The notes under the pieces were generated by a model that saw only the letters and a list, made by a program, of their open reading frames with translations, searched no databases and was not told where the DNA came from. Below are positions 1 to 60,800 of a stretch of 64,000 nt of DNA, one piece after another (positions within the stretch are counted from its first letter, which is position 1; every line of letters begins with the position of its first letter). A program made the position numbers and the translations under genes. Origin of the DNA: Lotus japonicus (Eukaryota > Streptophyta > Magnoliopsida > Fabales > Fabaceae); the NCBI RefSeq assembly GCF_012489685.1, contig NC_080042.1:28711158-28775157 (forward strand), written 5' to 3'.

Positions 1-608
1 TCCCAGGTAAGCTGGCCGGGCACAATGACTCATTAAAAGCCCTTCTTGCCTTAGACAGAACAACCCAAGTTCTTACGTGAATTCAAATGGGGTTTTTCCA
101 ATATCATTTTCAAACTCAATTTTCCTTTGAGAAGGTCTCGATCCATAAAACAATAATAGGGTACGAACCTCGGTCCGTCCCATCAAACTTTATCCAAAAA
201 CTCGTCAGGAGTCTGGCATAACTACCCGTTATCCACTATCTTGACGTTCCTCACTCATTCGCACAATTGCACGGTATATTCAATATAGTCAGCAATTCAA
301 GTGCGTAATAGAAAGACACAATATAATCAATATAATCCAAATATCATGTGAACAAGTAATCCCATAGCCTATAGTTAACCATTTAACAATTAAGCATGCG
401 AGTCAATTATCAACATATCAATGCGATAAATCCTGATCTCCCATGTCGGCCGAAGCCCAGAAAATGGAGACACACGTCTCAATCAGTTCACTCGGCCGAA
501 GCCTTCAGAAAACATTTTCAATCCAGACAATTCATATGCATAAACAATAATTCAATTCGAATTTATCGACGCCTACAAAGCATTAGCTAGCAAGTAAGTT
601 GCCCTAAC

Positions 609-686
609 CTCGAACTCGTCCAGTGTGTTCAAGCAAGGCTCCTTCACAATCCTCTTTTCCTGCTCCAAGTGTTCCTCCAAACGAAT
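609..686 (-). other. 78-nt exon-like block in LTR A
   Basis: Read on the minus strand, the block follows CAAAG (acceptor-like) and is followed by GTTAGG (donor-like). It is exactly 78 nt long, as are the blocks at the same place in LTRs B, C and D. In the frame with two leading bases it is open and contains Glu-Asp-Cys-Glu-Gly-Ala-Leu, which aligns with Glu-Cys-Glu-Glu-Ala-Leu in LTR C. It contains no ATG. The copy in the right LTR is at 59002-59079. I infer an internal exon of an LTR transcript. In A no matching downstream exon was found, so the gene is incomplete here. Confidence 0.5.
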
Positions 687-1676
687 CTTTGAGCAAACGA
701 AGCGAAAGTCAATCAAAACAAGTCAATTCGGTCAATACAATACTAACTAGCGTTTAGACAAAGCTTAAGAAGCTTCAGAGTACAATTTTTAAGCATGAAT
801 AGACGACAGAACCTCGTTCGCTAAAACGAGCATAACTCGAGCTACAGAACTCGGAATGACACGAAACCAGCGCCAAAATTTCGACAATCGAAAGAGCTAC
901 GCAATGGCTCAGGTCATAGAGACCCAAAAATTATTTTTGGACACGGTACCCTAAGCAATAGGTTTCGGCCACTATGTAAAATAGGGTTTCCGAGCTTTTT
1001 CTTCGATCTAAATCGATTCCTCGGTATTCTTAGGCGATATCTAGGCCAAGGAAACTCTCAGAAAAATTATCGAATCGAAATCTGTCGCAGGGGTATTTTG
1101 GTCAATATTTTTAGCTTAGAAACTCAAAATCAGAATTTCGAAAAACAAATTAGATGGGGTTGATACCAACGACGATTATAACGACTAATCTTACTAACGC
1201 TAAGCTCAGTCGAGGGTTTTAAGCCCAAAGGTTGGAACTTTAGCCAAAAATGGGTATTATGAGCAGAATTGAAACTCGGCGGCATTTCGGCGAGAATCGG
1301 CGAAATGTAATCCGCTAAACATGCTCATGGGCACGCAGGGAATAAGTTTGGATAGAAAGATGAAGTTATTTGGATAGTTTTGCCAAAAAAACTCAAAACT
1401 TAGAGCATAGAAGAACATAGAAAAAAGCTACGGAAACGACGATCAGAGGTAAGGATTAGCGACTATACCTCGATACCTTCAAGTAGCAACTGTTGAATCA
1501 ACGATCAAGCAAGAAATGGCAAAAATCTCTTATCCTCCTCCTCTTGGTGAAGCTCGCGGGTTTGGGAAAGAAAATGGTGAATTTTTTTGTTTTTTATTTT
1601 TCAAGCTACAACAACATATATATAGTGAATGAAATGGAAGATATTTTGTAAAGGTTAGATAAGGATAGAAAGATAT

Positions 1677-1745
1677 TTGTAAAGATCGGATAAGGATGAA
1701 TAGATATTTATCAAAGATCGGATAAGGATGAATAGATATTTTGTA
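1677..1745. repeat. 32-bp tandem repeat in LTR A (two units)
   Basis: A 32-bp unit beginning aaagatcggataagg occurs about twice here and three times at the matching place in the right LTR (60074-60170). The copy-number change explains most of the length difference between the two LTRs. Confidence 0.8.
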
Positions 1746-2485
1746 AACCGGTACATATTAGTTTAGATATCGGAGGATTTAACTCATAGAGTTAAGATAA
1801 AAAATATAAGAGCGATTCCGATTTTTCCTACTGATTCCAACGTATTTTAGACACGATATTCTTCCCGCTGAATCTTCTAATTCTTCAAAGAGATATCAGT
1901 ACGATTTTTGGTTTTCGAGGCTTGTTTTTAATGTTTGCCGGCTTAAAATGCACTTTATGGTTTTGACCTCGGATGTAGAAACTTCCATCTAAAGAAAGAT
2001 TTGGAACGTCAATTAGAGTGGGCGTACGCGGATGAAATCTTTATTTGAAGCTCCGAACAGAAAAAGTCTTCATCAACCGTTCATCTTAGGTTTCTTGGAC
2101 TATCAGGGTTTTAGTTTCGGCAAACCTCCGAGGATTGGAATCGGACATTCGTACATTCTAGGGTTTCGCCTCGAAACGCTTGTTATATATGGATTAAGAG
2201 AAGTTCTAACATTTCTCTGAAGATTTTTGGAATTAGTTTCCGTCGTGTCTTTAAGTGTAAACTAGCTATTTACTGGTGTTTTTGCCCTAGGTTTAAGCGT
2301 ATATCGATCGTGCTATAACTTTTATCGATTTTGATGAAATCCTTAGACTTTTCCTGAAGTTTCTCCTTCATAAATTTATTCCTTTCGATAAACTCTTGTT
2401 CAGGTTTTTCCTTCACGATACATCAAACCTAATCGTGAATAGGATTTTATTCACTTACTCTAAACTCAGAAACTTGGGTCTTACA

Positions 2486-2717
2486 TTACTACCCTCCAAA
2501 AAGAAAGTTTCTTCCTCGAAACTTAGAGTTCACCGAAAAGTTCTGAATACCGTTCCTTAATCTTTTCCTCTAACTCCTACTCATACACTATTCAAATTAA
2601 TTTTCGTCTTGCGTCTTAATACTTTGTCCTGCACTAAACTCATTTCCTAAAACCACTCTCTTGGTTTAGTATGTCATTCTAAACTTCGTATAACTTTCGT
2701 AGTTTAAAGCACGAGCG
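2486..2717 (-). pseudogene. Element A: last codons of pol and polypurine tract
   Basis: Read on the minus strand, the final codons of a chromoviral polyprotein are still recognisable at 2523-2576. They resemble the last residues of the polyproteins of B, C and E (Glu-Lys-Ile..., Tyr-x-Glu-Leu-Phe) and end in TAA. They are followed by the same purine-rich stretch ending ggagggtagtaa that sits directly before the 3' LTR in those elements. The rest of the 232 bp shows no recognisable pol sequence. With the gag-only interior at 56403-57849, this shows that protease, RT and integrase are missing from A. Confidence 0.75.
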
Positions 2718-3435
2718 ACCGTTGCAAGGCCCAAGTTTTCAAACTTATGCTAAGTGAATAAACTTCTTATTCACGATTAGGGTTGATGTAATGTGAAGGG
2801 AAACCTGAACAAAAGTTCATTAAATGAAATATATTTATGAAGGAGAAAGTTCAGGAAAAGTCTGAGGATTGTATCAAAGTCGATTTAAGTTATAGCACGA
2901 CTAATATTCGCTTTAAAAACCTAGGACAAGAATCTTAGGAAATAACACTATGTTCCACCCTTGGAACACTGTAGGATTTTAGTCCAAAAATCTTCAGAGA
3001 AATGTTAGAACTTCTCTTTTTCCATATATCAACATCGTTTCGAGACGAAACTCTAGGATCTACGAACGCCCGATTCCAATCATCGGAAGTTTGCCGAAAC
3101 CGAATCCCTAGTATTTCAAAACCCTAGAATCAACCGACAATGAAGACTTTTTCTATTCAGAGCTTCAAATGAAGATTCTACACGCGTACACCCATTTCTC
3201 TTGATGATTTCAATCTTTCTTCAGAAGGAAGTTTTCCATTCCGACATTCGATGCAAAAAGCAACTTATCGGGTAAAATAGTTTTACACCGACTATGCATT
3301 AGTTGCCAAAAATACAAGGAGACATCTATTTAGTTTTGGAATTCTTTTGCCAAAACATATCTTAGAATTCACGGAGAATGACGCCGGAAAAATCAGATTC
3401 GCGAAACTTTCATTTTCCCGTGAATTTCCATCTTC

Positions 3436-3443
3436 TATATATA
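3436..3443 (+). promoter_or_regulatory. TATA box of LTR B
   Basis: The sequence tatatata lies in the context cttctatatatagcaagc. The same box occurs in the 3' LTR of B (35604-35611), in C (9365-9372) and in E (12604-12611). It also lies on the minus strand in A (1617-1624), and D has a related tatttata (30826-30833). Transcription probably starts about 30 bp downstream, which makes 3470-3583 a leader exon without ATG. Confidence 0.7.
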
Positions 3444-4256
3444 GCAAGCAAGTGAGAAAAAAACACAAAACTCCTCCATTTTTCTCTACAAGGCCGCGAG
3501 CTTCAACAAGGAAGAAGGAAGAAGAGTTTTCTTCATTACTTGCTTGATCGTTGATCCGTTAGTTGCTGCTTCAAGGTTTCGAGGTATAGTCGCTAATCCT
3601 TACCTCTGATCGCTTTTTCCATAGCTTTTCTGTAGACTTTTCTGAGCTGATAGTTTATGGGTTTTTGCAAAACTATCCTGAAAATTTCATTTCTGATTCT
3701 AAACCTCTTCCTTATGTGCCCAAGATCACTTCTGCCGGGTTAGATTTTCCGTTATGTCGCCGGAATTCCGCCGGAATCAATTTTAGCCTTAAATACCCAT
3801 TTTTGGAGTTTTTGGAGTAAAGCTTCAACCTTTAGGCTAAAAACTATCGCCTTAGCTTAGTGCTAGTAGGATTAGTTGTCATAAACGTCGTTGGTGACGT
3901 CCCTGTCAAATTTGGTTTTTGGGATTTCAGTTTTGAAAATCCTAAGTTAAAAATCATGACCAAAATACCCCTACGACAGTTTTTGATCCGATAATTTTTC
4001 CGAGTTCAGAATACCCTTAGTTACGGCTAATGATAGCATAGGAACCAAGTTTGATCGAAGAAAAATCGAGTCTCCTAATTGTGAAAAGTGGCCGAACCTA
4101 TTAAGGGGGAGGAGGAAAATTTCCTTTTCCGAAAACTTGTCTTTCACGCTAGATTATCGTACCTTAGAGTATAGATTACTTCGAGTAACCTTAGTAAGTA
4201 TCGATAGCTTAGTTTTCGATAGATTCTGATAGTATTTCTGTGATTTTGTTTTAAAG

Positions 4257-4334
4257 GAACTTTTGAGGAATTTCCTGAGGAACAACACTTTGATTGTGAG
4301 GAAGAGTTGGAAATTCATTCTGGAGAACCTACAG
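4257..4334 (+). other. 78-nt exon-like block in LTR B
   Basis: The block is preceded by TTTTGTTTTAAAG and followed by GTGAGG, which are good plant splice-site contexts. In the frame with two leading bases and one trailing base it reads as an acidic peptide containing FEEFPEEQHFDCEE. Against the C copy (FEDFPEDQHFECEE), six of the first seven substitutions fall on third codon positions, as expected for protein-level selection. The trailing base joins in phase to the acceptor at 5791/5792, so the frame continues into the long LTR ORF. No ATG was found upstream in this frame, so the start codon is unresolved. Confidence 0.55.
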
Positions 4335-5791
4335 GTGAGGGCTTCTCACTGAATCTCTAGTTAATACTTAGGGTCGATGCTTTCGACATTGTTTACTGTT
4401 TATGCACTGGATTGTGTGTGATTGGAAAATGTTTTCTGAGGCTTCGGCTGACAATGTAGATGATGCATCTACTGAATGTTTTTGATGAGTGAATTACATG
4501 CTAAGTGCTAATTGGGTAATTTAGGATGTGTGGTGCATGCCTTATATGCTAAGTGCTATGTGGTTATTGCTTAATATATTGATATATGACATGTTGATTG
4601 GTTGTGCTGAGTTATTTATACTTATGCAATGAGATCTGAGATTCTGAATGGTGAGAATAGCGGGCAGGTCATGCCGATTTTATTCTGAGAGTTTTAAGAA
4701 AGTTTGATAGGACGAATGAGATTCGGACCTTGTTATGATGTGTATGGATCGAGACATTCTCTGGAGTCATTTGGGGATTTGGAGATCCCGAGAACTTATA
4801 GGATTTGCGATAAGACTAAAAGGATAGTATTTTGTAAAGAAAACTCATAAGACATTAAACAACCTCTAAATCTTTAATTAATGATAATAAACTCGAAAGG
4901 AAGGCGTGGAAGTCAAATCTTAGTTTTGGAAAACGAGAAGTGTCGTCGGATCCCAGTATTGAGAAAGTTGAGAGGCTTCGAGTATGTAGATGTTGTGGTG
5001 CTGTTGGAGCAGCGTTTGTTGTTGTGCTGTTGGAGCAGCTATGTTGTTGGGCTATCCTGGGGATAAGTCCGGGAAACCGTTAGTTTCCGAGAGTGTGATA
5101 CTCTGTGCTCGTTGAGCAGTTGTGACCATCGGATTGAGATGAGTCGGATGATTTGGAGATCATCGTGAGTTATGTGTTGTTGTGAAGAAGTGTCTTTTGT
5201 CGCAGAATCGACTTTACCTTAGGGTAAGCTTTTAGAGACTTTAATTTACCTAGAACACGTGGCGACGTGTCGAGTGAGATTCAGAGACGTTGTTTGTCTA
5301 ATCATCCTGCATTCATGCAACATTAATGAGGTATTAACACAGGACGTACTCTGGACCTCGTCGGATTCCAAAATGGTCATAAGACCCGGATTTCCGTGTA
5401 AGAGCGTATGTAGACGTCTCTTGTAGCAGACCGAAATGGCAGACCTACGGGTTACGGCTGATCTGACTACCGCTGTCGTTGGAGTAAGAGGCACGCGGGC
5501 CGAAATGGTCCCACCGTGGCTGGTGCTAGGGCTGATCCGTTGATGTCCATCCGTTCCGGATTGCATATTGGTTGACTGGGTTAACCTGCATACATATCAC
5601 GCAACATGCATACTAATTTAGTTGTTGAGTGTGATTGCTTCTTGTTAATCCTATTTGGAACATGCTATCTGTTATTATTGCGTTTATGTTATTGTGGAAC
5701 ATGCAACCCTAAGATGTTATCTCTAGCTATAAGCCTAAGTGGCTATCTATTATTTGTACCTATTGGGTTTATTATCTACATAGTTCTTTAG

Positions 5792-6325
5792 AGTTGACCC
5801 TCGCGTCTTCTGTGTGTGTTTTGGCGGACAACGCCTTTTGTCAGATGTCCATTGCGGACTGGTTCACAATGGTCCACCCTTCGGGGGGGGATTAGGTACG
5901 AGATGATCGATCAGGACGACCCCGAGTCGTGGGTGGTTGACCCCGCGAGCCATCGAGCGACGTATTCGGGGCGTATCATGGAGGACCACGTAGATAGTGG
6001 AGGACTCCTGAGGTCAGGAGTGTTGAGGAGGTGCTCTGTCAGCTTCAACTTGCCACCGGGCGTTCACTGTGGACCAGGACTTGGAGGACCACCACCACCA
6101 CCGTTGTCTTCAGACGAGGAGGATCCCTCAGAGGAGGAGCTAGTGGGAGTGCCTTCGGCAGAGTCTAGTGCACCCAGCTTAGCGGTCATTGATGATCAGG
6201 GTTCGGGCCCTAAGCCCGTGAGTCCAGCATCGGAGCGCACTGCGGTTGCGAGGGGAGGACGGATAGGGTTGGTAGACTTGGTCGTTCTGGATTCTGATTC
6301 GGACGACGATCATGCTAGCACGTAG
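5792..6325 (+). pseudogene. LTR-encoded acidic proline-rich ORF (LTR B, 5' copy, frameshifted)
   Basis: The frame opens after the acceptor-like TTCTTTAG and runs through an ATG at 5845 towards a stop ending at 6325. An extra G in the run at 5883-5890 (eight G against seven in the 3' LTR copy) shifts the frame, so this copy is broken. Conserved parts in order are MSIADWFTMVHPSG, then VVDPASHRATYS, a run of five prolines followed by SSDEEDPSEEE, and a C-terminal VDLVVLDSDSDDD. The last is a hydrophobic core followed by acidic/serine residues, like a SUMO-interacting motif. I do not recognise the family. D and C carry related, shortened copies. Function is unknown. Confidence 0.5.
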
Positions 6326-6820
6326 GTTTAGTGCTGGTGTGAGCTCCTTGAGTTAGGATTAGTGTAGGAGTAGAGTTTAGCTCTGACAGTCTTTGTTTCA
6401 TTTGTTTCTTTGGGGGACAGGGTAGTTCCGCCTATAGCTTTTTGTGTGGTTTCCTTACGGGAATCACAGAGAGTTGGTTGGACTTAGGAGGTCTTATTTT
6501 CAGGCCATTGGGTCAGCTTATTCTCAGTTTTGAGGGATAGTGTTGCGGACACTTACCTTTATATTCGGTTTGTACATATTGCCTACGGGCGCTACTCTTC
6601 TATTACCGTCACTGGAGGTTTACTCGTGACGAGGTTGTTACTTACAGCGGGGGCTGTTATATATATATTGTACATTAGTTCTGATTATTGTTATCGTTGG
6701 GTTTATTTATTTCAGTCTCGTCTTAGTTATTATCGAAAAAAAAAAAATATTTACGTTTTTCCGCATTAAGTTTACTTTTGGTTACTAAAGTGACGCCACC
6801 GAAATCGGGGTGTTACATTG

Positions 6821-6832: not shown

Positions 6833-7029
6833 ACGGTCGAGTCTTTCGGGAGTTGTTGGGGAATAGGTCTTCTGTGCTAGGTTGTGTGACTCTGCAAAGA
6901 GTGAAAATTGATTGTCTGCAAGCGATTTTTCGCTTAGAATTGATTGAAGTTATTGCTTACTCATATTGTATAGTGATGCTAGATGCTATCTTATGATGAG
7001 TACTGACTGTTTGCTTCCTTTAACAGAAC

Positions 7030-8657
7030 ATGGTGAATACAAATCAGTTAGCTGAGATGATGGCCACTATGGCCCAAGCCGTTACCGCACAGGCAAATGA
7101 TAATGCCATGAGGCGTGCTGCTGAAGAAGCACGTGAACAACATCAACGTCAAAGAGAGGTAACTCTCGACCAGAACAAGGGCCTCAATGACTTCAAGAGG
7201 CAAAACCCACCAAATTTCTCTGGTGGTACTGACCCAGACAAAGCGGATCTCTGGATCCAGGAGGTTGAAAAGATATTCGGCGTCCTACAGACTGTTGAGG
7301 GTGCCAAGGTGGGCATGGCGACATATCTGTTGCTCGGTGATGCTGAGTACTGGTGGAAGGGCAACAAGGGGATCATGGAAGCCAACCACGAGGAGATCAA
7401 CTGGAACTCCTTCCGAACTGCATTTTTGGAGAAATACTTTCCAACAAGTGCTCGGGATGAGCGGGAGTCACAGTTTATGACACTCCGTCAGGGAGGTATG
7501 TCTGTACCGGAATTTGCTTCGAAGCTGGAGTCTTTGGCTAAGCATTTCCAATTCTTTCATGATCACGTGAACGAGCGCTACATGTGCAAGCGTTTCGTTA
7601 ATGGACTTAGGCCGGATATTGAGGACTCAGTGAGGCCACTGGGAATCATGCGATTCCAATCATTGGTGGTGAAAGCCACGGAAGTGGAGCTGATGAAGAA
7701 CCGGAGGCTAAACCGGGCTGGAACTGGAGGGCCGATGAGGTCGAGCTCTCAGAATTTTCAGAACAGGGGAAGGTTTCAAAATAGGAGGCCGTATCAGCGT
7801 CCTGTTGGTAGAGGAGCGGCTTCGGGATCTTACAGGCCCATGGTGGGTGCTGCTGGTGGTTCAGGAGGTCAGACTCAGAACCGGGAACTGACTTGCTTCA
7901 AGTGTGGGAAGCCAGGGCATTATGCTCGTGATTGTCCCGACACGAGACCTCAATGCTACCACTGTAACAAACTGGGGCATACTGCGGCACAGTGCAAGGT
8001 ACCAAAGGCGGAACCAACCGTCAACACTGCGCGAGGGAAGCGTCCTGCTGCAAAGGCGAGAGTCTACACCATGAATGGTGAAGATGCTGAGGGGGTCGAT
8101 GGACTGATTAGAGGCGACCGCGAGATTGACGGTAACCTCCTATCCGTACTTTTTGATTCCGGTGCAACGCATTCATTTATCTCTAGGGAATGCGCGATCA
8201 GATTAAAACTTCCTATTACTGCTTTGAGCTTCGATCTGATAGTTACTACTCCTGCCAAGACTCTACTTGCTAATTCAGCATGCATGTATTGTTCGATAAC
8301 ATATAACAATAGGATCTACCAAGCTAACCTAGTATGCCTAACTCTTAAGAACCTAGATATTATCCTAGGAATGGATTGGTTGTCCCGCTATCATTGTCTT
8401 TTGGACTGCAACCGAAAGAGAGTGGTATTTCCTGATTCGGATCTTTCCGAGTATCTATCTGCCAATCACATTGGCGTCTCTTTGAACGAGGGATCTCAAG
8501 AGTATTCCGTTCTGCTGAGCTTGGAGAGTAAAGGGAATCCGGGAGTTGATAGTATTCCAGTGGTGAAAGAATTCACAGATGTTTTTCCTGGCGATGTACC
8601 TGGATTGCCGCCTGTACGCAACATTGAGTTTGCTATAGACATCATACCGGGAACAGG
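7030..8657 (+). pseudogene. gag-pol: Element B gag-protease part of polyprotein (split by element C)
   Basis: An ATG at 7030 begins [16 protein letters not shown], the gag N-terminus shared by A, B, C and E. A retrotransposon gag domain follows (around [14 protein letters not shown]), then two CCHC zinc knuckles ([14 protein letters not shown] and [14 protein letters not shown]) that bind RNA, then the aspartic protease signature [10 protein letters not shown]. The frame is open up to 8657, where element C is inserted just before the RT domain, and resumes in phase at 32063. Without C the polyprotein would be 1,472 residues plus stop. It lacks the 7-residue gag duplication seen in C and E. 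Confidence 0.92.
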
Positions 8658-10185: not shown

Positions 10186-10263
10186 GTGCTTTTGAGGATT
10201 TCCCCGAGGACCAACACTTTGAGTGCGAGGAAGCACTAGTTGATAATTCTGGAGAACTTTCAG
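10186..10263 (+). other. 78-nt exon-like block in LTR C
   Basis: The block lies between TTGTAAAG and GTGAGG and is the same length as the block of LTR B. Its open frame contains FEDFPEDQHFECEEALVDNSGE. The copy in the 3' LTR of C is at 26288-26365. The leader exon upstream has a TAA in this frame, so translation is unlikely to start in that exon. Confidence 0.52.
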
Positions 10264-11673: not shown

Positions 11674-11810
11674 AGTTGACCCTCGTGTCTTCTGTGTGTG
11701 TTTTGGCGGACAACGCCTTTTGTCAGATGAGTATTGCGGACTGGTTCACCATGGTCCACCCTTCGGGGGAAACTAGGTTGGGATGCTGGAACAGGAGCGC
11801 GTCGCGGTAG
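11674..11810 (+). pseudogene. LTR ORF of element C (internally deleted)
   Basis: The frame follows the acceptor-like TTCTTTAG and includes an ATG at 11727. It keeps the conserved MSIADWFTMVHPSGETR but then jumps by deletion into the GC-rich part and stops at 11810. The proline-rich and acidic half found in LTR B is lost, except for a short out-of-frame remnant before 11880. The 3' LTR copy (ATG 27832, stop ending 27915) has the same deletion, so the deletion predates insertion of C. Confidence 0.5.
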
Positions 11811-11885
11811 CGAGAGGATGACGGATGGTGTACATAGACTAGGTCGTTCTGGATTTCGAATTCGGACGACGATCATGCTAGCATG

Positions 11886-13389
11886 TGTAAGGCCCGAGTT
11901 TTAGGCTTATGTTATGTGAATAAACTTTTTATTCACGATTAGGGTTGATGTAATGTGAAGGGAAACCTGAACGAAAGTTTATTAAATGAAATATATTTAT
12001 GAAGGAGAAAGTTCAGGAAAAGTTCAAGGATTTCATTATGATCGATAAAAGTTATAGCACGAACGTTTTACGCTTAAACCTAGGTCAGAAACCCTAGTAT
12101 ATAGCTAATTTTTCACTTTTAGGCACGCTGGCAGTTAATTCCAAAAATCTTCAGAGAAATGTTAGAATTTCTCTTCTTCCATATATAACAATCGTTTCGA
12201 GGCGAAACTCTAGGATCTACGAACGTCCGATTCCAATCATCGGAAGTTTGCCGAAACCGAATCCCTGGTATTTCAAAACCCTAGAATTTCCCGACTTTGA
12301 GGACTTTATCTATTCAGAGCTTCAAATGAATATTCCACACGCGTACACCCATTTCTCTTGATGATTTCAATCTTTCTTCAGAAGGAAGTTTTCCATTCCG
12401 ACATTCGAGGCAAAAAGCAACTTATCGGGTAAAATAGTTTTACACCGACTTTGCACCGACTTTGCATTAGTTGCCAAAAATACAAGGAGACATCTTCTTA
12501 GCTTGGGAATTCCTTTGCCAAAACCTATCTTAGAATTCATGGTGAATGACGCCGGAAAAATCGGATTCGCGGAACTTTCATTTTCCCGCGAATTTCCACC
12601 TTCTATATATAGCAAACAAAGGAAGAAAAAACACAATTTTCCTCCATTTTCTCTCCTCTAAACCGTGGCCAAGAACAAGGAAGAAGGAAGAAGAGTTTTT
12701 CTTCATCGTTTGCTTGATCGTCGATCAATCAGTTGCTACTTCAAGGTTTCGAGGTATAGTCGCTAATCCTTACCTCCGATCGCTTTTTCCATAGCTTTTC
12801 TGTAGAGTTTTCTGAGTGGATAGTTTATGGGTTTTTGCAAAACTATCCTGAATCTTTCATTTCTGGATTCTGATTCAGACGACGATCATGCTAGCACATA
12901 GTTTTGAGTGTTGGTATGAGCTCCTCGAGTTAGGATTAGTGTAGGAGTAGAGTTTTAGCTCTGACAGTCTTGCTTCATTTGTTACTTAGGGGACAGGGTA
13001 GATCCGCCTATAGCTTTTTGTGTGGTTTCCTTACGGGAATCACAGAGAGTTGGTTGGACTTAGGAGGTCTTATTTTCAGGCCATTGGGTCAGCTAAATCT
13101 CAGTTTTGAGGGATGGTGTTGCGGGCACTTCACCCTTTTCATTTGGTTTGTATATATTGCCTACGGGCATTGCACTTTTCTTTCCGTCACTGGAGGTTAC
13201 TCGTGACGAGGTTGTTACTTACAGCGGGGGCTGTTTATATATTGTATATTAGTTTTATTACTTTTCGCATTTGGGTTTTATTTAATTCAGTCTTGTCTTA
13301 GTTATTATCAAAAAAAAAATATTCACGTTTTTCCGCATTAAGTTTACTTTTGGTTACTAAAGTGACGCCACCGAAATCGGGGTGTTACA
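11886..13389 (+). repeat. Element E, 5' LTR (1,504 bp)
   Basis: The ends match LTR C, but about 2.2 kb of the middle is missing. Sequence jumps at about 12863-12880 from the region just after the leader donor straight to the tail of the LTR ORF (gattctgattcagacgacg). The TATA box (12604-12611) and leader donor remain. The exon-like block and most of the LTR ORF are gone. The same junction is in the 3' LTR (about 19063-19080). Confidence 0.94.
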
Positions 13390-18078: not shown

Positions 18079-19589
18079 TGTAAGGCCCGAGTTTTAGGCT
18101 TATGTTAAGTGAATAAACTTTTTATTCACGATTAGGGTTGATGTAATGTGAAGGGAAACCTGAACGAAAGTTTATTAAATGAAATATATTTATGAAGGAG
18201 AAAGTTCAGGAAAAGTTCAAGGATTTCATTATGATCGATAAAAGTTATAGCACGAACGTTTTACGCTTAAACCTAGGTCAGAAACCCTAGTATATAGCTA
18301 ATTTTTCACTTTTAGGCACGCTGGCAGTTAATTCCAAAAATCTTCAGAGAAATGTTAGAATTTCTCTTCTTCCATATATAACAATCGTTTCGAGGCGAAA
18401 CTCTAGGATCTACGAACGTCCGATTCCAATCATCGGAAGTTTGCCGAAACCGAATCCCTGGTATTTCAAAACCCTAGAATTTCCCGACTTTGAGGACTTT
18501 ATCTATTCAGAGCTTCAAATGAATATTCCACACGTGTACACCCATTTGTCTTGATGATTTCAATCTTTCTTCAGAAGGAAGTTTTCCATTCCGACATTCG
18601 AGGCAAAAAGCAACTTATCGGGTAAAATAGTTTTACACCGACTTTGCACCGACTTTGCATTAGTTGCCAAAAATACAAGGAGACATCTTCTTAGCTTGGG
18701 AATTCCTTTGCCAAAACCTATCTTAGAATTCATGGTGAATGACGCCGGAAAAATCGGATTCGCGGAACTTTCATTTTCCCGCGAATTTCCACCTTCTATA
18801 TATAGCAAACAAAGGAAGAAAAAACACAATTTTCCTCCATTTTCTCTCCTCTAAACCGCGGCCAAGAACAAGGAAGAAGGAAGAAGGAAGAAGAGTTTTT
18901 CTTCATCGTTTGCTTGATCGTCGATCAATCAGTTGCTACTTCAAGGTTTCGAGGTATAGTCGCTAATCCTTACCTCCGATCGCTTTTTCCATAGCTTTTC
19001 TGTAGAGTTTTCTGAGTGGATAGTTTATGGGTTTTTGCAAAACTATCCTGAATCTTTCATTTCTGGATTCTGATTCAGACGACGATCATGCTAGCACATA
19101 GTTTTGAGTGTTGGTATGAGCTCCTCGAGTTAGGATTAGTGTAGGAGTAGAGTTTTAGCTCTGACAGTCTTGCTTCATTTGTTACTTAGGGGACAGGGTA
19201 GATCCGCCTATAGCTTTTTGTGTGGTTTCCTTACGGGAATCACAGAGAGTTGGTTGGACTTAGGAGGTCTTATTTTCAGGCCATTGGGTCAGCTGATTCT
19301 CAGTTTTGAGGGATGGTGTTGCGGGCACTTCACCCTTTTCATTTGGTTTGTATATATTGCCTACGGGCATTGCACTTTTCTTTCCGTCACTGGAGGTTAC
19401 TCGTGACGAGGTTGTTACTTACAGCGGGGGCTGTTTATATATTGTATATTAGTTTTATTACTTTTCGCATTTGGGTTTTATTTAATTCAGTCTTGTCTTA
19501 GTTATTATCAAAAAAAAAATATTCACGTTTTTCCGCATTAAGTTTACTTTTGGTTACTAAAGTGACGCCACCGAAATCGGGGTGTTACA
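18079..19589 (+). repeat. Element E, 3' LTR (1,511 bp)
   Basis: Near-identical to 11886-13389, with the same large internal deletion. It ends at TTACA before the TSD gcatg. Confidence 0.95.
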
Positions 19590-27700: not shown

Positions 27701-27931
27701 ATGATATCTCTAGTTATAAGCCTAAGTGGCTATCTATTATTTGTACCTATTGGGTTTATTATCTACATAGTTCTTTAGAGTTGACCCTCGCGTCTTCTGT
27801 GTGTGTTTTGGCGGACAACGCCTTTTGTCAGATGAGTATTGCGGACTGGTTCACCATGGTCCACCCTTCGGGGGAAACTAGGTTGGGATGCTGGAACAGG
27901 AGCGCGTCGCGGTAGCGAGAGGATGACGGAT
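24771..27931 (+). repeat. Element C, 3' LTR, first part
   Basis: Starts TGTAAGGCCCGAG right after the polypurine tract and runs to the TSD cggat (27927-27931) of solo LTR D. It carries the same TATA box, 78-nt block (26288-26365), minisatellite (27000-27076) and shortened LTR ORF (ATG 27832, stop ending 27915) as the 5' LTR. Confidence 0.94.
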
Positions 27932-28375: not shown

Positions 28376-28504
28376 CTAATCCCATCTCGAGTAAGTCGCT
28401 CGGTGGCCAGCGGGGTCGACCACCCCTGAACCGTAGTCCTCCTGATCAAGCTTCTTCAACCTAGTTTCCCCTGAAGGGTGAACCATCGTGAACCGGTCCG
28501 CCAT
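28376..28504 (-). pseudogene. LTR ORF of D (42 residues, truncated)
   Basis: On the minus strand an ATG at 28504 starts MADRFTMVHPSGETRLKKLD, followed by VVDPAGHRATYS and a stop. Against LTR B, most base changes within the shared part fall on third codon positions (for example GTC/GTT, TCG/TCA, CAT/CAC, TAT/TAC). That supports this frame as a real protein in the ancestor. The proline-rich and acidic half is missing. Confidence 0.5.
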
Positions 28505-29946
28505 ACTCAACTGACAATGGCGTAGTCCGCCCAAACACACACAGAAGACGCGAGGGTCAACTCCAAAGAATTATATAAATAATAAAACCAGATATATAGG
28601 GTAATAATTATTTAGCCTCTCAGGCTTATACGTTTAGGGATAACATCCTAGGGTTGCATATATCACAACGAATATAAAGATCATAATAACAATTAGCATG
28701 CCTCAAGTAGGATAAACAGGTACCAATCACACTCAGCAACTAAGTCAGCATGTATGTTGCATGAAATGCAATGCTGGGTAACAAAATGCATTCCGGAAGA
28801 AGGATGGACACCATCGAGTCAGCCCTAACACCGGCCAAAGTGGGACCATTCCGCTCGGGCGCCTCTTACACCACACAAAAGTAGTCAGATCAGCAGTGAA
28901 CCCGTAGGTCTGCCATTCCGTCTGCTACTAAGGACCACCGTAGTGTCCTAAATATGGAAATCCGGGTCTTATGACCATTTTGGAATCCACCGAGGTCCGG
29001 TATCACGCCGTGTATTAACCTCAAAATGAGTGCATGAATGCAAGTGATTAGCCAAACAACGTCTCCGACCTCACTCGACACGTCGTCACGTGTTCTAGCT
29101 AACTTATTGTCTCTAAAAAGCCTACCCTAAGGCAAACGTCGATTCTGCGACAAAATGAATTAATCAAAAGAAGAAGAAGATACTTTGGAACTCATGGTTC
29201 CCGGCAAAACTTTAGATAGCCAATCAATAAACTGCTCATCGAGCGAAAAGGTACCGAAGTACTTGGAAACTTATAGTCTCCGGCTAAACTTTAGATAGCC
29301 AAACAATAAACTGCTCATCGAGCGAAAAGAGTATCAACATACTCGAAAACTTGTAAGTTCCTCAAAACTTGGACTCGACGACACTTATCATATCTTCAAG
29401 ACTAATATTCAGGCTCTAAGCTCTTATCTAAAGTTGTTATCATTGTTCAAGGGGTTTAGAGATTGATTAATGTCTTATGAATTTTCTTTGAGAAAATAGA
29501 TTTCGTTTAGTCTTATGATACTTCCTATGAGTTTCAGGGATCCCATAATCCCAATTAATTTCTGAGAAGGTCTCGATCCATTAAAATATAACAAGGTCCG
29601 AACTTCGTTCGTCCTTTCAAACTCTCTCAAAATCTCATAAAAATTCGGCATGACTTGCCCGTAATCCTCACTTTCCAGAAACATAGGCACGAGTGGAATA
29701 GCATCAATGAAACAGCTCAACCAATAGGCATAAACAGCATATTCCAACACATCCTAAGTTAACCATGTAGCACATAGCATGTGAATCATTTAGCACACAA
29801 TATCATGGCATCAAGTACTCAACAAGTTCGGCCGAAGCCTCAGAAATCATTTCAGACATTTAGCAATTAGGTGCATAACACATAAATCAAGTCGAATTTC
29901 ATCGACACCTAAAGCATTATCTAGTAATTCAGAGAGTAGCCCTCAC

Positions 29947-30024
29947 CGGTGGGTCTTCCAGCTTCTTCCTCAAGATGTTCTCCAAACTCTTCTCCTTGAT
30001 TTCTGGGAATCTCCTCAAACGAAC
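29947..30024 (-). other. 78-nt exon-like block in LTR D
   Basis: On the minus strand it lies between GCTTAAG and GTGAGG. Length is again 78 nt, and the open frame (two leading bases) reads SFEEIPRNQGEEF followed by an acidic tail. Sequence has diverged from B and C, but length, phase, splice-site-like borders and acidic character are kept. Confidence 0.48.
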
Positions 30025-34890: not shown

Positions 34891-37800
34891 TGTAAGGCCC
34901 AAGTTTTCAAACTTATGCTAAGTGAATAAACTTCTTATTCACGATTAGGGTTGATGTAATGTGAAGGGAAACCTGAACAAAAGTTCATTAAATGAAATAT
35001 ATTTATGAAGGAGAAAGTTCAGGAAAAGTCTGAGGATTGTATCGAAGTCGATTTAAGTTATAGCACGACTAATATTCGCTTTAAAAACCTAGGACAAGAA
35101 TCTTAGGAAATAACATTATGTTCCACCCTTGGAACACTGTAGGATTTTAGTCCAAAAATCTTCAGAGAAATGTTAGAACTTCTCTTTTTCCATATATCAA
35201 CATCGTTTCGAGGCGAAACTCTAGGATCTACGAACGCCCGATTCCAATCATCGGAAGTTTGCCGAAACCGAATCCCTGGTATTTCAAAACCCTAGAATCA
35301 ACCGACAATGAAGACTTTTTCTATTCAGAGCTTCAAATGAAGATTCTACACGCGTACACCCATTTCTCTTGATGATTTCAATCTTTCTTCAGAAGGAAGT
35401 TTTCCATTCCGACATTCGATGCAAAAAGCAACTTATCGGGTAAAATAGTTTTACACCGACTATGCATTAGTTGCCAAAAATACAAGGAGACATCTTTTTA
35501 GTTTTGGAATTCTTTTGCCAAAACATATCTTAGAATTCACGGAGAATGACGCAGGAAAAATCAGATTCGCGAAACTTTCATTTTCCCGCGAATTTCCATC
35601 TTCTATATATAGCAAGCAAGTGAGAAAAAAACACAAAACTCCTCCATTTTTCTCTCCAAGGCCGCGAGCTTCAACAAGGAAGAAGGAAGAAGAGTTTTCT
35701 TCATTACTTGCTTGATCATTGATCCGTTAGTTGCTGCTTCAAGGTTTCGAGGTATAGTCGCTAATCATTACCTCTGATCGCTTTTTCCATAGCTTTTCTG
35801 TAGACTTTTCTGAGCTGATAGTTTATGGGTTTTTGCAAAACTATCATGAAAATTTCATTTCTGATTCTAAACCTCTTCCTTATGTGCCCAAGATCACTTC
35901 TGCCGGGTTAGATTTTCCGTTATGTCGCCGGAATTCCGCCGGAATCAATTTTAGCCTTAAATACCCATTTTTGGAGTTTTTGGAGTAAAGCTTCAACCTT
36001 TAGGCTAAAAACTATCGCCTTAGCTTAGTGCTAGTAGGATTAGTTGTCATAAACGTCGTTGGTGACGTCCCTGTCAAATTTGGTTTTTGGGATTTCAGTT
36101 TTGAAAATCCTAAGTTAAAAATCATGACCAAAATACCCCTGCGACAGTTTTTGATCCGATAATTTTTCCGAGTTCAGAATACCCTTAGTTACGGCTAATG
36201 ATAGCATATGAACCAAGTTTGATCGAAGAAAAATCGAGTCTCCTAATTGTGAAAAGTGGCCGAACCTATTAAGGGGGAGGAGGAAAATTTCCTTTTCCGA
36301 AAACTTGTCTTTCGCGCTAGATTATCGTACCTTAGAGTATAGATTACTTCGAGTAACCTTAGTAAGTATCGATAGCTTAGTTTTCGATAGATTCTGATAG
36401 TATTTCTGTGATTTTGTTTTAAAGGAACTTTTGAGGAATTTCCTGAGGAACAACACTTTGATTGTGAGGAAGAGTTGGAAATTCATTCTGGAGAACCTAC
36501 AGGTGAGGGCTTCTCACTGAATCTCTAGTTAATACTTAGGGTCGATGCTTTCGACATTGTTTACTGTTTATGCACTGGATTGTGTGTGATTGGAAAATGT
36601 TTTCTGAGGCTTCGGCTGACAATGTAGATGATGCATCTACTGAATGTTTTTGATGAGTGAATTACATGCTAAGTGCTAATTGGGCAATTTAGGATGTGTG
36701 GTGCATGCCTTATATGCTAAGTGCTATGTGGTTATTGCTTAATATATTGATATATGACATGTTGATTGGTTGTGCTGAGTTATTTATACTTATGCAATGA
36801 GATCTGAGATTCTGAATGGTGAGAATAGCGGGCAGGTCATGCCGATTTTATTTTGAGAGTTTTAAGAAAGCTTGATAGGACGAATGAGATTCGGACCTTG
36901 TTATGATGTGTATGGATCGAGACATTCTCTGGAGTCATTTGGGGATTTGGAGATCCCAAGAACTTATAGGATTTGCGATAAGACTAAAAGGATAGTATTT
37001 TGTAAAGAAAACTCATAAGACATTAAACAACCTCTAAATCTTTAATTAATGATAATAAACTCGAAAGGAAGGCGTGGAAGTCAAATCTTAGTTTTGGAAA
37101 ACGAGAAGTGTCGTCGGATCCCAGTATTGAGAAAGTTGAGAGGCTTCGAGTATGTAGATGTTGTGGTGCTGTTGGAGCAGCGTTTGTTGTTGTGCTGTTG
37201 GAGCAGCTATGTTGTTGGGCTATCCTGGGGATAAGTCCGGGAAACCGTTAGTTTCCGAGAGTGTGATACTCTGTGCTCGTTGAGCAATTGTGACCATCGG
37301 ATTGAGATGAGTCGGATGATTTGGAGATCATCGTGAGTTATGTGTTGTTGTGAAGAAGTGTCTTTTGTCGCAGAATCGACTTTACCTTAGGGTAAGCTTT
37401 TAGAGACTTTAATTTACCTAGAACACGTGGCGACGTGTCGAGTGAGATTCGGAGACGTTGTTTGTCTAATCATCCTGCATTCATGCAACATTAATGAGGT
37501 ATTAACACAGGACGTACTCTAGACCTCGTCGGATTCCAAAATGGTCATAAGACCCGGATTTCCGTGTAAGAGCGTCTGTAGACGTCTCTTGTAGCAGACC
37601 GAAATGGCAGACCTACGGGTTACGGCTGATCTGACTACCGCTGTCGTTGGAGTAAGAGGCACGCGGGCCGAAATGGTCCCACCGTGGCTGGTGCTAGGGC
37701 TGATCCGTTGATGTCCATCCGTTCCGGATTGCATATTGGTTGACTGGTTTAACCTGTATACATATCACGCAACATGCATACTAATTTAGTTGTTGAGTGT

Positions 37801-38655
37801 GATTGCTACTTGTTAATCCTATTTGGAACATGCTATCTGTTATTATTGCGTTTATGTTATTGTGGAACATGCAACCCTAGGATGTTATCTCTAGCTATAA
37901 GCCTAAGTGGCTATCTATTATTTGTACCTATTGGGTTTATTATCTACATAGTTCTTTAGAGTTGACCTTCGCGTCTTCTGTGTGTGTTTTGGCGGACAAC
38001 GCCTTTTGTCAGATGTCCATTGCAGACTAGTTCACAATGGTCCACCCTTCGGGGGGGATTAGGTACGAGATGATCGATCAGGACGACCCCGGGTCGTGGG
38101 TGGTTGACCCCGCGAGCCATCGAGCGACGTATTCGGGGCGTATCATGGAGGACCACGTAGATAGTGGAGGACTCCTGAGGTCAGGAGTGTTGAGGAGGTG
38201 CTCTGTCAGCTTCAACTTGCCACCAGGCGTTCACTGTGGACCAGGACTTGGAGGACCACCACCACCACCGTTGTCTTCAGACGAGGAGGATCCCTCAGAG
38301 GAGGAGCCAGTGGGAGTGCCTTCGGCAGAGTCTAGTGCACCCAGCGTAGCGGTCATTGATGATCAGGGTTCGGGCCCTAAGCCCGTGAGTCCAGCATCGG
38401 AGCGCACTGCGGTTGCGAGGGGAGGACGGATAGGGTTGGTAGACTTGGTCGTTCTGGATTCTGATTCGGACGACGATCATGCTAGCACGTAGGTTTAGTG
38501 CTGGTGTGAGCTCCTCGAGTTAGGATTAGCGTAGGAGTAGAGTTTAGCTCTGACAGTCTTTGCTTCATTTGTTTCTTTGGGGGACAGGGTAGTTCCGCCT
38601 ATAGCTTTTTGTGTGGTTTCCTTACGGGAATCACAGAGAGTTGGTTGGACTTAGG
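34891..38655 (+). repeat. Element B, 3' LTR, first part
   Basis: Starts TGTAAGGCCCAAG after the polypurine tract (34879-34890) and runs to the TSD ttagg (38651-38655) of Sirevirus F. With 56070-56397 it makes 4,093 bp against 4,095 bp for the 5' LTR. It repeats the TATA box (35604-35611), the 78-nt block (36425-36502) and the LTR ORF (37960-38492). Confidence 0.95.
37960..38492 (+). pseudogene. LTR-encoded acidic proline-rich ORF (LTR B, 3' copy, one nonsense codon)
   Basis: This copy has seven G in the run at 38051-38057, so the frame from the acceptor-like site (exon start 37960) through the ATG at 38013 to the stop at 38492 is continuous. The exception is one TAG at 38028-38030 that replaces the Trp codon of the conserved ADWF. 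Downstream of that, an ATG at 38037 gives an open 151-residue frame with VVDPASHRATYS, five prolines, SSDEEDPSEEE and the terminal VDLVVLDSDSDDD. Comparing the two LTR copies implies an intact ancestral ORF of 159 codons from the ATG. Confidence 0.55.
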
Positions 38656-47200: not shown

Positions 47201-47852
47201 ATGGCTGCCACCACCAGTGAAACTCAAAGAGATGGTTACAATGCAAAGCCTCCTATGTTCGACGGTCAAAGGTTCGAATATTGGAAAGATAGACTGGAAA
47301 GTTTCTTTCTGGGTTTCGATGCAGATCTCTGGGATATTATTGTGGATGGCTACGAGCGTCCAGTTGATGCAGATGGCAAGAAGATCCCAAGGTCAGAGAT
47401 GACTGCAGATCAAAAGAAGCTGTACTCACAACATCACAAAGCAAGAGCAATTCTTCTAAGTGCATGGCATTGGCTATTCTAAACCAATTAGAAATGAGCC
47501 CTCTGTGTCTAAAGCTAAATCCTTGTATGAATGCTTTGTTCCCTCTGGTACCATATTGCCTGATCCTGTACCTGCTAAAGTTGCTAAACACCCTCTTAAA
47601 AAGGGATCCTTCTCTGTGACTAAATATCATGCAAATATTCCTTTAAAATATCATGTTGAGACACCCAAGGTGATCAGAACCTCTGGGGTAACTAACAAGA
47701 AAGGACCCAGAAAGTGGGTACCTAAGGACAAGATTATCTATGTTGCAGATATCCTTGATAGCTCCACTAAAACACCAATCATGGTATCTGGACAGTGGAT
47801 GCTCGCGTCACATGACGGGAGAAAGGCGTATGTTCCGAGAGCTGAAACTTAA
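47201..47852 (+). pseudogene. gag: Element F gag remnant (central part deleted, frameshifted)
   Basis: An ATG at 47201 starts MAATTSETQRDGYNAKPPMF, a copia gag N-terminus, and runs about 86 residues to AILLSA. There a deletion joins it, out of frame, to a later gag segment (from about 47460 in another frame: SKPIRNEPSVSKAKSLYE, then [15 protein letters not shown]). No CCHC zinc knuckle remains. The second segment runs into a third frame at about 47782, where protease begins, so it shifts again at the gag/pol border. A functional gag cannot be made from this copy. Confidence 0.85.
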
Positions 47853-56397: not shown

Positions 56398-56402
56398 ACC
56401 GT

Positions 56403-56524
56403 CACATAAGGTCTTAATAGGGGTGATAACTATAAGGTCAAAGCTCAATAATAAAAGCAATTAGTTGTGGTGCACATGCTTCGAGAGTAAAGGTGTAGGT
56501 TATACTAGAAATTAGAAGGAATAG
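56403..56524 (-). other. Element A: unrecognised sequence after gag
   Basis: On the minus strand this follows the premature end of gag, where B, C and E have protease. It resembles none of their pol sequence. B was inserted at its end, and the rest of the A interior continues at 2717. Confidence 0.6.
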
Positions 56525-57637: not shown

Positions 57638-57828
57638 GTTCTGTTAAGTTACACGAACGGTTAGTACTCATCATAAGATAGCATTTGTTATGACTATACA
57701 ATATGATTAAGCAATAACTTCAATCAATTTTAAGCGAAAAATCACTTGCAGACAATCAATTCTCACTCTTTGCAGAGTCACACAACCTAGCACAGAAAAC
57801 CTATTCCCCAAAGACTCCCGAAAGACTC

Positions 57829-57846: not shown

Positions 57847-57849
57847 CAA

Positions 57850-60800
57850 TGTAACACCCTAAGGTACACAAAGAAGTGCTAATCGCATTTGGTAACTTTC
57901 CTAGTCACTTGGGCTCACCGTCTCGATGGCCAACCAAACTGCTCAACGAGCAAAAGAATGCAACTCGCACTCAGTGACCTTTCAACTTACCATGGCTCAC
58001 CATCTCGATGGCCAAACAAACAGCTCAACGAGCAAAAGAGCATCAACATACTCAGAACTGACTAGTTCCCCGACTTATCCCTTGGATTGGCCAACCAATA
58101 AAACTTGCTCATCGAGCAAAGTGCCAACGCACAATGGTTTCCCCAGAAACCTGGATCCGACAACACTTCTCATTTTCAAAACTTAATGTTCAAGCCCTAA
58201 ACTTTCGTCTGAGTCTTTTATCATTATATTAAGGGTTTTGAGGTTGTTTAATACATTATGGAGGTTCATTATGAAATTGTTTAAGTTTCATCTCTAATCC
58301 TATTAGTTTCAAAGATCCTATAATTCCAATGATTCCCTGGAGAAGGTCTCAAAACAAAAGGTCCATCATCACCCAAGTAATGGCCCGAGAAGTTCCCAGG
58401 TAAGCTGGCCGGGCACAATGCCTCATTAAAAGCCCTTCTTGCCTTAGACAGAACAACCCAAGTTCTTACGTGAATTCAAATGGGGTTTTTCCAATATCAT
58501 TTTCAAACTCAATTTTCCTTTGAGAAGGTCTCGATCCATAAAACAATAATAGGGTACGAACCTCGGTTCGTCCCATCAAACTTTATCCAAAAACTCGTCA
58601 GGAGTCTGGCATAACTACCCGTTATCCACTATCTTGACGTTCGTCACTCATTCGCACAATTGCACGGTATATTCAATATAGTCAGCAATTCAAGTGCGTA
58701 ATAAAAAGACACAATATAATCAATATAATCCAAATATCATGTGAACAAGTAATCCTATAGCCTATAGTTAACCATTTAACAATTAAGCATGCGAGTCAAT
58801 TATCAACATATCAATGTGATAAATCCTAATCTCCCATGTCGGCCGAAGCCCAGAAAATGGAGACACACGTCTCAATCAGTTCACTCGGCCGAAGCCTTCA
58901 AAAAACATTTTCAATCCAGACAATTCATATGCATAAACAATAATTCAAGTCGAATTTATCGACGCCTACAAAGCATTAGCTAGCAAGTAAGTTGCCCTAA
59001 CCTCGAACTCGTCCAGTGTGTTCAAGCAAGGCTCCTTCACAATCCTCTTTTCCTGCTCCAAGTGTTCCTCCAAACGAATCTTTGAGCAAACGAAGCGAAA
59101 GTCAATCAAAACAAGTCAATTCGGTCAATACAATACTAACTAGTGTTTAGACAAAGCTTAAGAAGCTTCAGAGTACAATTTTTAAGCATGAATAGACGAC
59201 AGAACCTCGTTCGCTAAAACGAGCATAACTCGAGCTACAGAACTCGGAATGACACGAAACCAGCGCCAAAATTTCGACAATCGAAAGAGCTATGCAATGG
59301 CTCAGGTCATAGAGATCCAAAAATTATTTTTGGACACGGTACCCTAAGCAATAGGTTTCGGCCACTATGTAAAATAGGGTTTCCGAGCTTTTTCTTCGAT
59401 CTAAATCGATTCCTAGGTATTCTTAGGCGATATCTAGGCCAAGGAAACTCTCAGAAAAATTATCGAATCGAAATCTCTTGCAGGGGTATTTTGGTCAATA
59501 TTTTTAGCTCAGAAACTCAAAATCAGAATTTCGAAAAACAAATTAGATGGGGTTGATACCAACGACGATTATAACGACTAATCTTACTAACGCTAAGCTC
59601 AGTCGAGGGTTTTAAGCCCAAAGGTTGGAACTTTAGCCAAAAATGGGTATTATGAGCAGAATTGAAACTCGGCGGCATTTCGGCGAGAATCGGCGAAATG
59701 TAATCCGCTAAACATGCTCATGGGCACGCAGAGAATAAGTTTGGATTGAAAGATGAAGTTATTTGGATAGTTTTGCCAAAAAAACTCAAAACTTAGAGCA
59801 TAGAAAAACATAGAAAAAAGCTACGGAAACGACGATCAGAGGTAAGGATTAGCGACTATACCTCGATACCTTCAAGTAGCAACTGTTGAATCAACGATCA
59901 AGCAAGAAATGGCAAAAATCTCTTCTCCTCCTCCTCTTGGTGAAGCTCGCGGGTTTGGGAAAGAAAATGGTTAATTTTTTTGTTTTTCATTTTTCAAGCT
60001 ACAACAACATATATATAGTGAATGAAATTGAAGATATTTTGTAAAGGTTAGATAAGGATGGATAGATATTTGTAAAGATCGGATAAGGATGAATAGATAT
60101 TTATCAAAGATCGGATAAGGATGAATAGATATTTATCAAAGATCGGATAAGGATGAATAGATATTTTGTAAACCGGTACAGATTAGTTTAGATATCGGAG
60201 GATTTAACTCATAGAGTTAAGATAAAAATATAAGAGCGATTCCGATTTTTCCTACTAATTCCAACGTATTTTAGACACGATATTCTTCCCGCTGAATCTT
60301 CTAATTCTTCAAAGAGATATCAGTACGATTTTTGGTTTTCGAGGCTTGTTTTTTATGTTTGCCGGCTTAAAATGCACTTTATGGTTTTGACCTCGGATGC
60401 AGAAACTTCCTTCTGAAGAAAGATTTGGAACGTCGATTAGAGTGGGCATTCGCGGATGAAATCTTTATTTGAAGCTCCGAACAGAAAAAGTTTTCATCAA
60501 CCGTTCATCTTAGGTTTCTTGGACTATCAGGGTTTTAGTTTCGGCAAACCTCCGAGGATTGGAATCGGACGTTCGTACATTCTAGGGTTTCGCCTCGAAA
60601 CGCTTGTTATATATGGATTAAGAGAAGTTCTAACATTTCTCTGAAGATTTTTGGAATTAGTTTCCGTCGTGTCTTTAAGTGTAAACTAGCTATTTACTTG
60701 TGTTTTTTCCCTAGGTTTAAGCGTATATCGATCGTGCTATAACTTTTATCGATTTTGATGAAATCCTTAGACTTTTCCTGAAGTTTCTCCTTCATAAATT

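What the first reader, a model, noticed from the sequence alone, without database searches (positions are those of the whole stretch)
2723..6817. A spliced gene appears to be hidden inside the long chromovirus LTRs
Seen: downstream of the LTR TATA box, LTRs B and C share a leader donor (TTTCGAG|GTATAG), a block of exactly 78 nt bordered by AAAG and GTGAGG, and an acceptor (TTCTTTAG) that opens a long ORF. The phases fit: the block ends with one base and the ORF exon begins with two. The 78-nt length is also kept in the diverged LTRs D (29947-30024) and A (609-686, 59002-59079), and in each the same phase is open and acidic. Between B and C, six of the first seven changes in the block are third-position. 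Inference: the LTR R/U5 region carries a multi-exon gene under past protein-level selection. I know of no description of this. Weak point: no ATG lies upstream in the frame, so the first ATG is in the last exon (5845) unless another exon or a non-AUG start exists.
Basis: partly seen in the sequence, partly recalled or inferred. Interest (0 to 1): 0.88.

Follow-up and report, generated by a model that had tools for sequence, protein, structure and literature searches.

The report
Accessory protein gene inside retrotransposon LTRs

Summary
The window is very probably Lotus japonicus. That is one exon from ATG 5845, encoding ~159 aa (221 aa in a diverged subfamily), with a conserved N-terminal domain, an acidic proline-rich linker and, in two of three sampled groups, a SUMO-interacting-like C-terminus. 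Among the 150 best-scoring genome matches, 125 and 132 lack stops. dN/dS between families is 0.18, against 0.08-0.13 for gag. Every copy in this window is broken: the two B LTRs by different lesions, C, D and E by deletion; A lacks the ORF. The 78-nt block is probably a 5'-UTR exon: AG|78|GT is kept, ATG is rare, and in-frame stops precede it in 13 of 29 exon-1 sequences. Two NCBI models join the exon-2 donor to that CAG. A residual bias keeps one frame of the block open, unexplained. No RNA reads could be tested. Searches listed no plant LTR-internal ORF.

The parts
2723..6817 (+). 5' LTR of element B (TG...CA), host of the gene
   Evidence: self-comparison; sequence; PBS TGGTATCAGAGC follows
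3436..3443 (+). TATA box (TATATATA)
   Evidence: sequence; seen in relatives
3465..3583 (+). exon 1, ATG-free 5' UTR (start inferred, some 20-30 nt after the TATA box), donor CGAG|GTATAG
3584..4256 (+). intron 1; between B-type L009 and C it is less diverged (0.05) than exons 1 and 2 (0.29, 0.26)
4257..4334 (+). exon 2: the 78-nt block, probably a 5'-UTR exon
4335..5844 (+). intron 2, ending TTTTGTCAG; 42 ATGs
5845..6325 (+). coding exon of the LTR protein (MSIADWF...DSDSDDDHAST); broken here by a frameshift in a G-run near 5890
6326..6817 (+). 3' UTR to LTR end; the stop-to-LTR-end distance is 465-498 nt in the 37 of 40 intact relatives where the end motif was found
7011..7032 (+). acceptor-like site TTCCTTTAACAG|AAC before the gag ATG (7030)
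36425..36502 (+). exon 2 in the 3' LTR of element B
38013..38492 (+). coding exon in the 3' LTR of B: full length with one in-frame stop at residue 6, a different lesion from B5
10186..10263 (+). exon 2 in C 5' LTR
11727..11885 (+). C 5' LTR remnant of the coding exon (internal deletion)
27832..27906 (+). C 3' LTR remnant of the coding exon
29947..30024 (-). exon 2 in LTR D
28388..28510 (-). LTR D remnant of the coding exon (TTG in place of ATG, internal deletion)
609..686 (-). exon 2 in A 3' LTR
59002..59079 (-). exon 2 in A 5' LTR; no coding-exon match in the A LTR
11886..13389 (+). E 5' LTR: keeps exon 1 and donor, lacks LTR positions ~978-3563 (most of intron 1, exon 2, most of the ORF)
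18079..19589 (+). E 3' LTR with the same deletion

Best explanation
Full-length LTRs of this Lotus Ty3/gypsy family carry a small protein gene nested in the LTR. Shown: a conserved ~159-aa (221-aa in one subfamily) ORF under purifying selection sits at a near-fixed distance from the LTR end, with CAG|ATG at its start. Inferred: transcription starts below the TATA box; two nearly ATG-free leader exons (exon 1 and the 78-nt exon 2) are spliced to CAG|ATG so that the first AUG is the protein's own, removing intron sequence that holds 47 ATGs in B; the RNA ends near the LTR end. The same donors could splice to the acceptor-like site before the gag ATG, so the LTR gene and gag may be alternative outputs of one leader, with only unspliced RNA packaged. 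The product probably works as an accessory protein: a small folded N-terminal domain, an acidic proline-rich linker and, in two of three sampled groups, a C-terminal SUMO-interacting-like motif. My guess, about 0.3, is that it tethers element proteins to SUMO-modified host chromatin or counters silencing. It may act in trans for relatives that lack the ORF.
For: Homologues: 5 of the 8 hits are NCBI Lotus proteins. Matches with no stop in the matched range: 125 of 150 and 132 of 150, my counts from the tables; these are the best-scoring rows only. dN/dS B-P 0.18 (first 75 codons 0.10), P-P 0.14, Q-Q 0.28, B-B 0.36 (5 B, 28 P, 7 Q copies); gag yardstick 0.08-0.13. CAG|ATG in 39 of 40 intact copies; LTR end 465-498 nt after the stop in 37 of 40; PBS then follows in 5. 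The two LTRs of B carry different lesions, so the ORF was probably intact when B inserted. Exon 1: 0 of 32 unique copies with ATG (0.84 expected per copy). Exon 2: 4 of 48 with ATG, 26-33 expected. NCBI models P0006 and P0007 were placed on the genome and end exon 2 at |GTGAGG and resume at CAG|; P0004 carries a 26-residue stretch, exactly exon-2 length, before MSMADW (not placed). Acceptor-like TAACAG before the gag ATG in B, C, E, A, in three P-type loci and in Q. SIM-like C-terminus in 5 of 5 B and 28 of 28 P copies, shuffled rate 0.05-0.10.
Against: No RNA evidence was available; I do not know whether the NCBI models rest on reads. No intron-less retrocopy was found for two junction patterns, so splicing is not shown. 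Strict SIM pattern 0 of 7 in the 221-aa subfamily, which ends MITVDSDSDSE, and absent in P0005, P0011, P0012 and P0018; P0010 matched only outside that tail. ORF-less forms have inserted (both LTRs of A, of C and of E share their loss), A-type copies are frequent and a C-like deletion is in 9 of 20 B-related loci, so the protein is not needed in cis. Protein-based searches favour conserved copies, which biases the P and Q dN/dS low; B copies were found by DNA but only the 5 intact ones were used. One frame of exon 2 is kept open more than a plain UTR exon should be. The fold prediction is weak (pLDDT 51.7, 12 sequences).
Confidence: 0.74

Rival explanations
1. One reading: exon 2 is a coding exon continuous in frame with the ORF, starting at a non-AUG codon or an unseen exon.
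For: The frame is open in 45 of 48 unique copies; P=0.005 or 0.035 against neutral simulation; pN/pS 0.75 and 112 of 285 changes at third positions. NCBI model P0007 reads exon 2 in this frame.
Against: In-frame TGA four codons upstream in 13 of 29 exon-1 sequences; no ATG in 32 of 32 exon-1 copies; phase fits the ORF only through TTTAG|AG, seen only in B, C and six B relatives; frame broken in L009, L010, L018; amino-acid constraint weak.
Confidence: 0.12
2. Exon 2 is a UTR exon in the LTR mRNA whose open frame is translated from elsewhere, for instance when gag or pol RNA splices into the 3' LTR, giving an acidic C-terminal tail.
For: Explains an open frame without AUG; openness exceeds neutral expectation.
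Against: No such donor was tested; the frame runs out of phase into the ORF exon and ends about 16-18 codons later (read by eye and 50 sequences).
Confidence: 0.1
3. The ORF is a captured host gene fragment or a chance ORF carried along by amplification.
For: ORF-less copies exist in number.
Against: dN/dS 0.18 between families at dS 0.77; shared by a subfamily only 51-54% identical to a B-type protein; no named non-Lotus homologue (one search scored only the 7,988 candidates sharing most words; some hits have no species name).
Confidence: 0.08
4. The leader is never spliced; the ORF is translated from short transcripts starting just upstream of 5845.
For: No spliced retrocopies found with two patterns.
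Against: ATG depletion sits in exons 1 and 2; splice borders kept while the exon sequence drifts; NCBI models use them.
Confidence: 0.15

Closest known systems
5' additional ORFs (aORF/eORF) of Tekay-clade chromoviruses, e.g. RIRE3, Retrosat-2, sunflower Tekay group 2 (PMC11728184, abstract and passages seen)
   Same: Sense-strand extra protein on the 5' side of gag in a probably related lineage, conserved across hundreds of copies (500 of 523 in sunflower), largely disordered and proline-rich, function unknown.
   Different: Reported as lying 5' of GAG-POL, and a search of that text for 'within the LTR' and 'inside the LTR' gave nothing; here the ORF is inside the LTR, so it exists twice per element and can persist in solo LTRs, behind a split leader. 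Sequence similarity to those proteins was not tested directly.
MMTV sag and other LTR-encoded retroviral genes (recalled; only search listings of MMTV papers seen)
   Same: Protein encoded inside an LTR.
   Different: MMTV sag lies in U3 of the 3' LTR (recalled); here the ORF lies downstream of the LTR TATA box, probably in R.
Retroviral leader architecture: major splice donor, packaging signal only in unspliced RNA (recalled)
   Same: One LTR leader donor, possible alternative acceptors for an accessory ORF and gag; little-diverged intron downstream of the donor.
   Different: A packaging role of intron 1 is only guessed from its low divergence.
Maize Grande gene23, Retand ORF4 and similar aORFs (PMC7264820, parts 1 and 2 of 3 read)
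   Same: Accessory ORFs of plant Ty3/gypsy elements; Grande's product is nuclear.
   Different: These lie between pol and 3' LTR, antisense.

Membership tests
Ty3/gypsy LTR retrotransposon | gag, protease, RT, RNase H, integrase domains in that order | tested here: met
   Pfam Retrotrans_gag, RVP_2, RVT_1, RT_RNaseH, Integrase_H2C2, SH3_Tf2-1 on four window ORFs
Ty3/gypsy LTR retrotransposon | paired LTRs and tRNA primer binding site | tested here: met
   B5/B3 99% identical; TGGTATCAGAGC after LTR
Chromovirus (Tekay clade) | chromodomain at the integrase C-terminus | tested here: inconclusive
   No chromodomain family at E<=0.01 on 33975-34850; type II chromodomains are divergent (recalled)
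Chromovirus (Tekay clade) | RT phylogeny places the element in Tekay | not tested
Tekay 5' aORF | extra sense ORF on the 5' side of gag | tested here: met
   ORF 5845-6325 upstream of gag 7030; L064/L065: ORF, LTR end, PBS, gag
Tekay 5' aORF | sequence homology to known aORF proteins | not tested
   known aORF proteins were not compared; no Pfam match for 4 proteins
SUMO-interacting-motif protein | hydrophobic core followed by an acidic or serine stretch | tested here: inconclusive
   33 of 33 in B and P, 0 of 7 in Q by strict pattern
SUMO-interacting-motif protein | binding to SUMO | not testable with these tools
   needs a binding assay
LTR-encoded viral gene (MMTV sag kind) | complete ORF inside the LTR | tested here: met
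   window B5 and B3 (broken copies) lie inside their LTRs; LTR end found after the stop in 37 of 40 intact relatives, whose LTR starts were not checked
Spliced gene | RNA with introns removed at the named sites | not testable with these tools
   no reads held; NCBI models P0006 and P0007 consistent

The most novel reading that the evidence does not exclude
The LTRs of an abundant plant retrotransposon lineage are themselves self-sufficient spliced protein genes, so an intact element carries two and a solo LTR can keep one. The SUMO-linked product serves the family in trans, including ORF-less and gag-only relatives, and the 78-nt leader exon carries a second, separately selected reading frame.
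Probability: 0.25. Interest if true: 0.87.

Novelty: new variant of a known kind. Interest (0 to 1): 0.7.

Why it matters
Plant LTRs are usually treated as non-coding control regions. A high-copy family whose LTR carries a protein gene under purifying selection would mean that solo LTRs remain potential genes, that annotation pipelines report retrotransposon proteins as host 'uncharacterized proteins', and that some long LTRs may be explained by coding content. The survey I consulted counted extra ORFs of at least 250 codons (PMC6317226, passages), so a 159-221-codon ORF falls below its cut. Elements with and without the ORF coexist, which makes its role testable.
Full report
What the window is. 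The LTR of the finding (B5, 2723-6817) is one of several related LTRs nested in each other: B5/B3, C5/C3, E5/E3, solo LTR D and A5/A3. The internal ORFs carry Ty3/gypsy gag, protease, RT, RNase H and integrase domains. The genome has 553,688,102 bases. The protein hits that bear a species name are Lotus japonicus, and the contig length reported for P0003 (97,635,135) equals contig C3 of this genome; the lengths given for other records differ slightly from the other contigs. I take the species to be Lotus japonicus.

The observation. Donor, 78-nt block and B/C acceptor are there. All seven block copies in the window have AG before and GTGAGG or GTTAGG after. The claim that the acceptor opens a long ORF is not right for these copies: in B5 the frame from 5794 stops after 33 codons and the rest of the protein lies in another frame; in C the region is deleted.

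The coding exon. Searching the downstream piece of the B5 ORF found 8 proteins, five of them NCBI 'uncharacterized' Lotus proteins. A profile search found 18, including a second subfamily of 221-222 aa and an entry named 'unknown' from Lotus (P0014), which I believe to be a cDNA clone (recalled). In the genome the best 150 matches to the 158-aa type include 125 without a stop and those to the 221-aa type 132; the first looks gave 9,887 and 7,036 unconfirmed candidates. Forty ORFs of at least 150 codons in fetched loci gave dN/dS 0.18 between B-type (5) and P-type (28) copies at dS 0.77, with 0.10 in the first 75 codons; within groups B, P and Q 0.36, 0.14 and 0.28; B-Q and P-Q 0.39 and 0.40. 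The yardstick, gag of elements A, B, C and E, gave 0.08-0.13. Hence this is a protein gene under purifying selection, looser than gag. B5 has a frameshift and B3 has a stop at residue 6. Because LTRs are identical at insertion, two different lesions suggest that B inserted with an intact ORF.

Where translation starts. 39 of 40 intact copies read CAG|ATG. Three B-type copies with an intact ORF from that ATG have a frame break just upstream. The 221-aa subfamily has a stop 17 codons upstream and, by eye, no other AG between. So the protein most likely starts at ATG 5845.

What the 78-nt block is. Each of 58 detected copies in 35 unique forms is 78 nt (the pattern allowed 60-95 nt; some loci overlap), including the 221-aa subfamily. 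With later pieces there are 48 unique forms. Four of 48 hold an ATG. Exon 1 has no ATG in 32 of 32 unique forms, and in 13 of 29 an in-frame TGA lies four codons before its donor. NCBI models P0006 and P0007, placed on the genome, run through exon 2, leave at |GTGAGG and resume at CAG|; P0004 has a 26-residue stretch of exactly exon-2 length. The plain reading is a 5'-UTR exon of an ATG-poor leader, while the introns in B hold 47 ATGs.

Results against that reading. Neutral simulation expects 28 of 48 copies with a stop in frame 2; 3 were seen (P=0.005). With site-specific state profiles 16 are expected (P=0.035) (200 runs each). pN/pS is 0.75 against 1.08 and 0.94; changes by position 78/112/95 (chi-square P 0.048, permutation 0.08). 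So a weak coding-like signal remains without a start codon, and I cannot explain it.

Leader and gag. Before the gag ATG stands an acceptor-like site with TAACAG in B, C, E and A, three P-type loci and the 221-aa type. The leader donors may therefore also serve gag. Between B-type L009 and C, intron 1 differs at 5% of sites against 29% and 26% in exons 1 and 2; gag synonymous sites of window B and C differ at 26%. The exon-1 figure may be inflated because that comparison was aligned almost without gaps, and in other pairs the contrast is smaller or reversed (B-A: intron 0.36, exon 1 0.24). Low divergence of the intron could reflect control or packaging signals, or a recent exchange between families. 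Two pattern searches for spliced retrocopies found none.

The protein. An N-terminal domain of about 70 residues is predicted as one helix and four strands at pLDDT about 75; the rest is low-confidence, probably disordered; no close PDB match. A proline-rich acidic stretch (SSDEEDPSEE) and a C-terminal LVVLDSDSDDD follow. The SIM-like pattern is present in 33 of 33 B and P copies and 0 of 7 of the 221-aa type under the strict pattern; among database records P0002, P0003, P0004, P0006, P0007 and P0017 have it at the C-terminus, P0005, P0010, P0011, P0012 and P0018 do not. SUMO binding is an inference.

Dispensability. A (LTR 3,060 nt, gag-only interior of about 1.7 kb), C, D and E lack an intact ORF. 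Both LTRs of A, of C and of E share the loss, so these elements inserted without it. A-type copies are common (40 scored at 99-100% identity, 1,835 candidates) and a C-like deletion is seen in 9 of 20 B-related loci; how common E is was not tested. The protein is therefore not needed in cis; help in trans or loss of need are both possible.

Known work. A review of additional ORFs places them mostly between pol and the 3' LTR (PMC7264820, parts 1 and 2 of 3 read). Tekay elements can carry a 5' aORF (PMC11728184, abstract and passages). A large survey counted extra ORFs of 250 codons or more (PMC6317226, passages). LORE1 and LORE2 are the two transpositionally active Gypsy families that PMC2832683 (passages) names in Lotus; I did not test whether this family is LORE2. 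None of the searches listed an LTR-internal ORF of this kind in plants.

Noticed in passing
56398-60909 and 492-2722 (minus strand): Element A looks like a non-autonomous, gag-only family: LTR 3,060 nt without the ORF, interior about 1.7 kb; three genome pairs of its exon 2 lie 4.73-4.77 kb apart.
   Followed up: partly
11886-13389 and 18079-19589: Element E has both LTRs shortened by the same ~2.6-kb deletion that removes exon 2 and most of the ORF, yet its gag and much of pol are open.
   Followed up: partly
3584-4256 compared with exons 1 and 2: Between B-type L009 and C, intron 1 is far less diverged (5%) than the leader exons (29%, 26%) and than gag synonymous sites (26%); constraint or recent recombination; other pairs show less contrast.
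   Followed up: partly
   Followed up: partly
L110, L111: NCBI protein P0007 joins this LTR exon to an N-terminal exon whose motifs were not found in the 3.5 kb upstream, a possible chimeric host-LTR gene model.
   Followed up: no
47740-50841 and 51103-54144: Another insertion with a polyprotein that looks Ty1/copia-like by eye and a separate long ORF lies inside the split 3' LTR of B.
   Followed up: no
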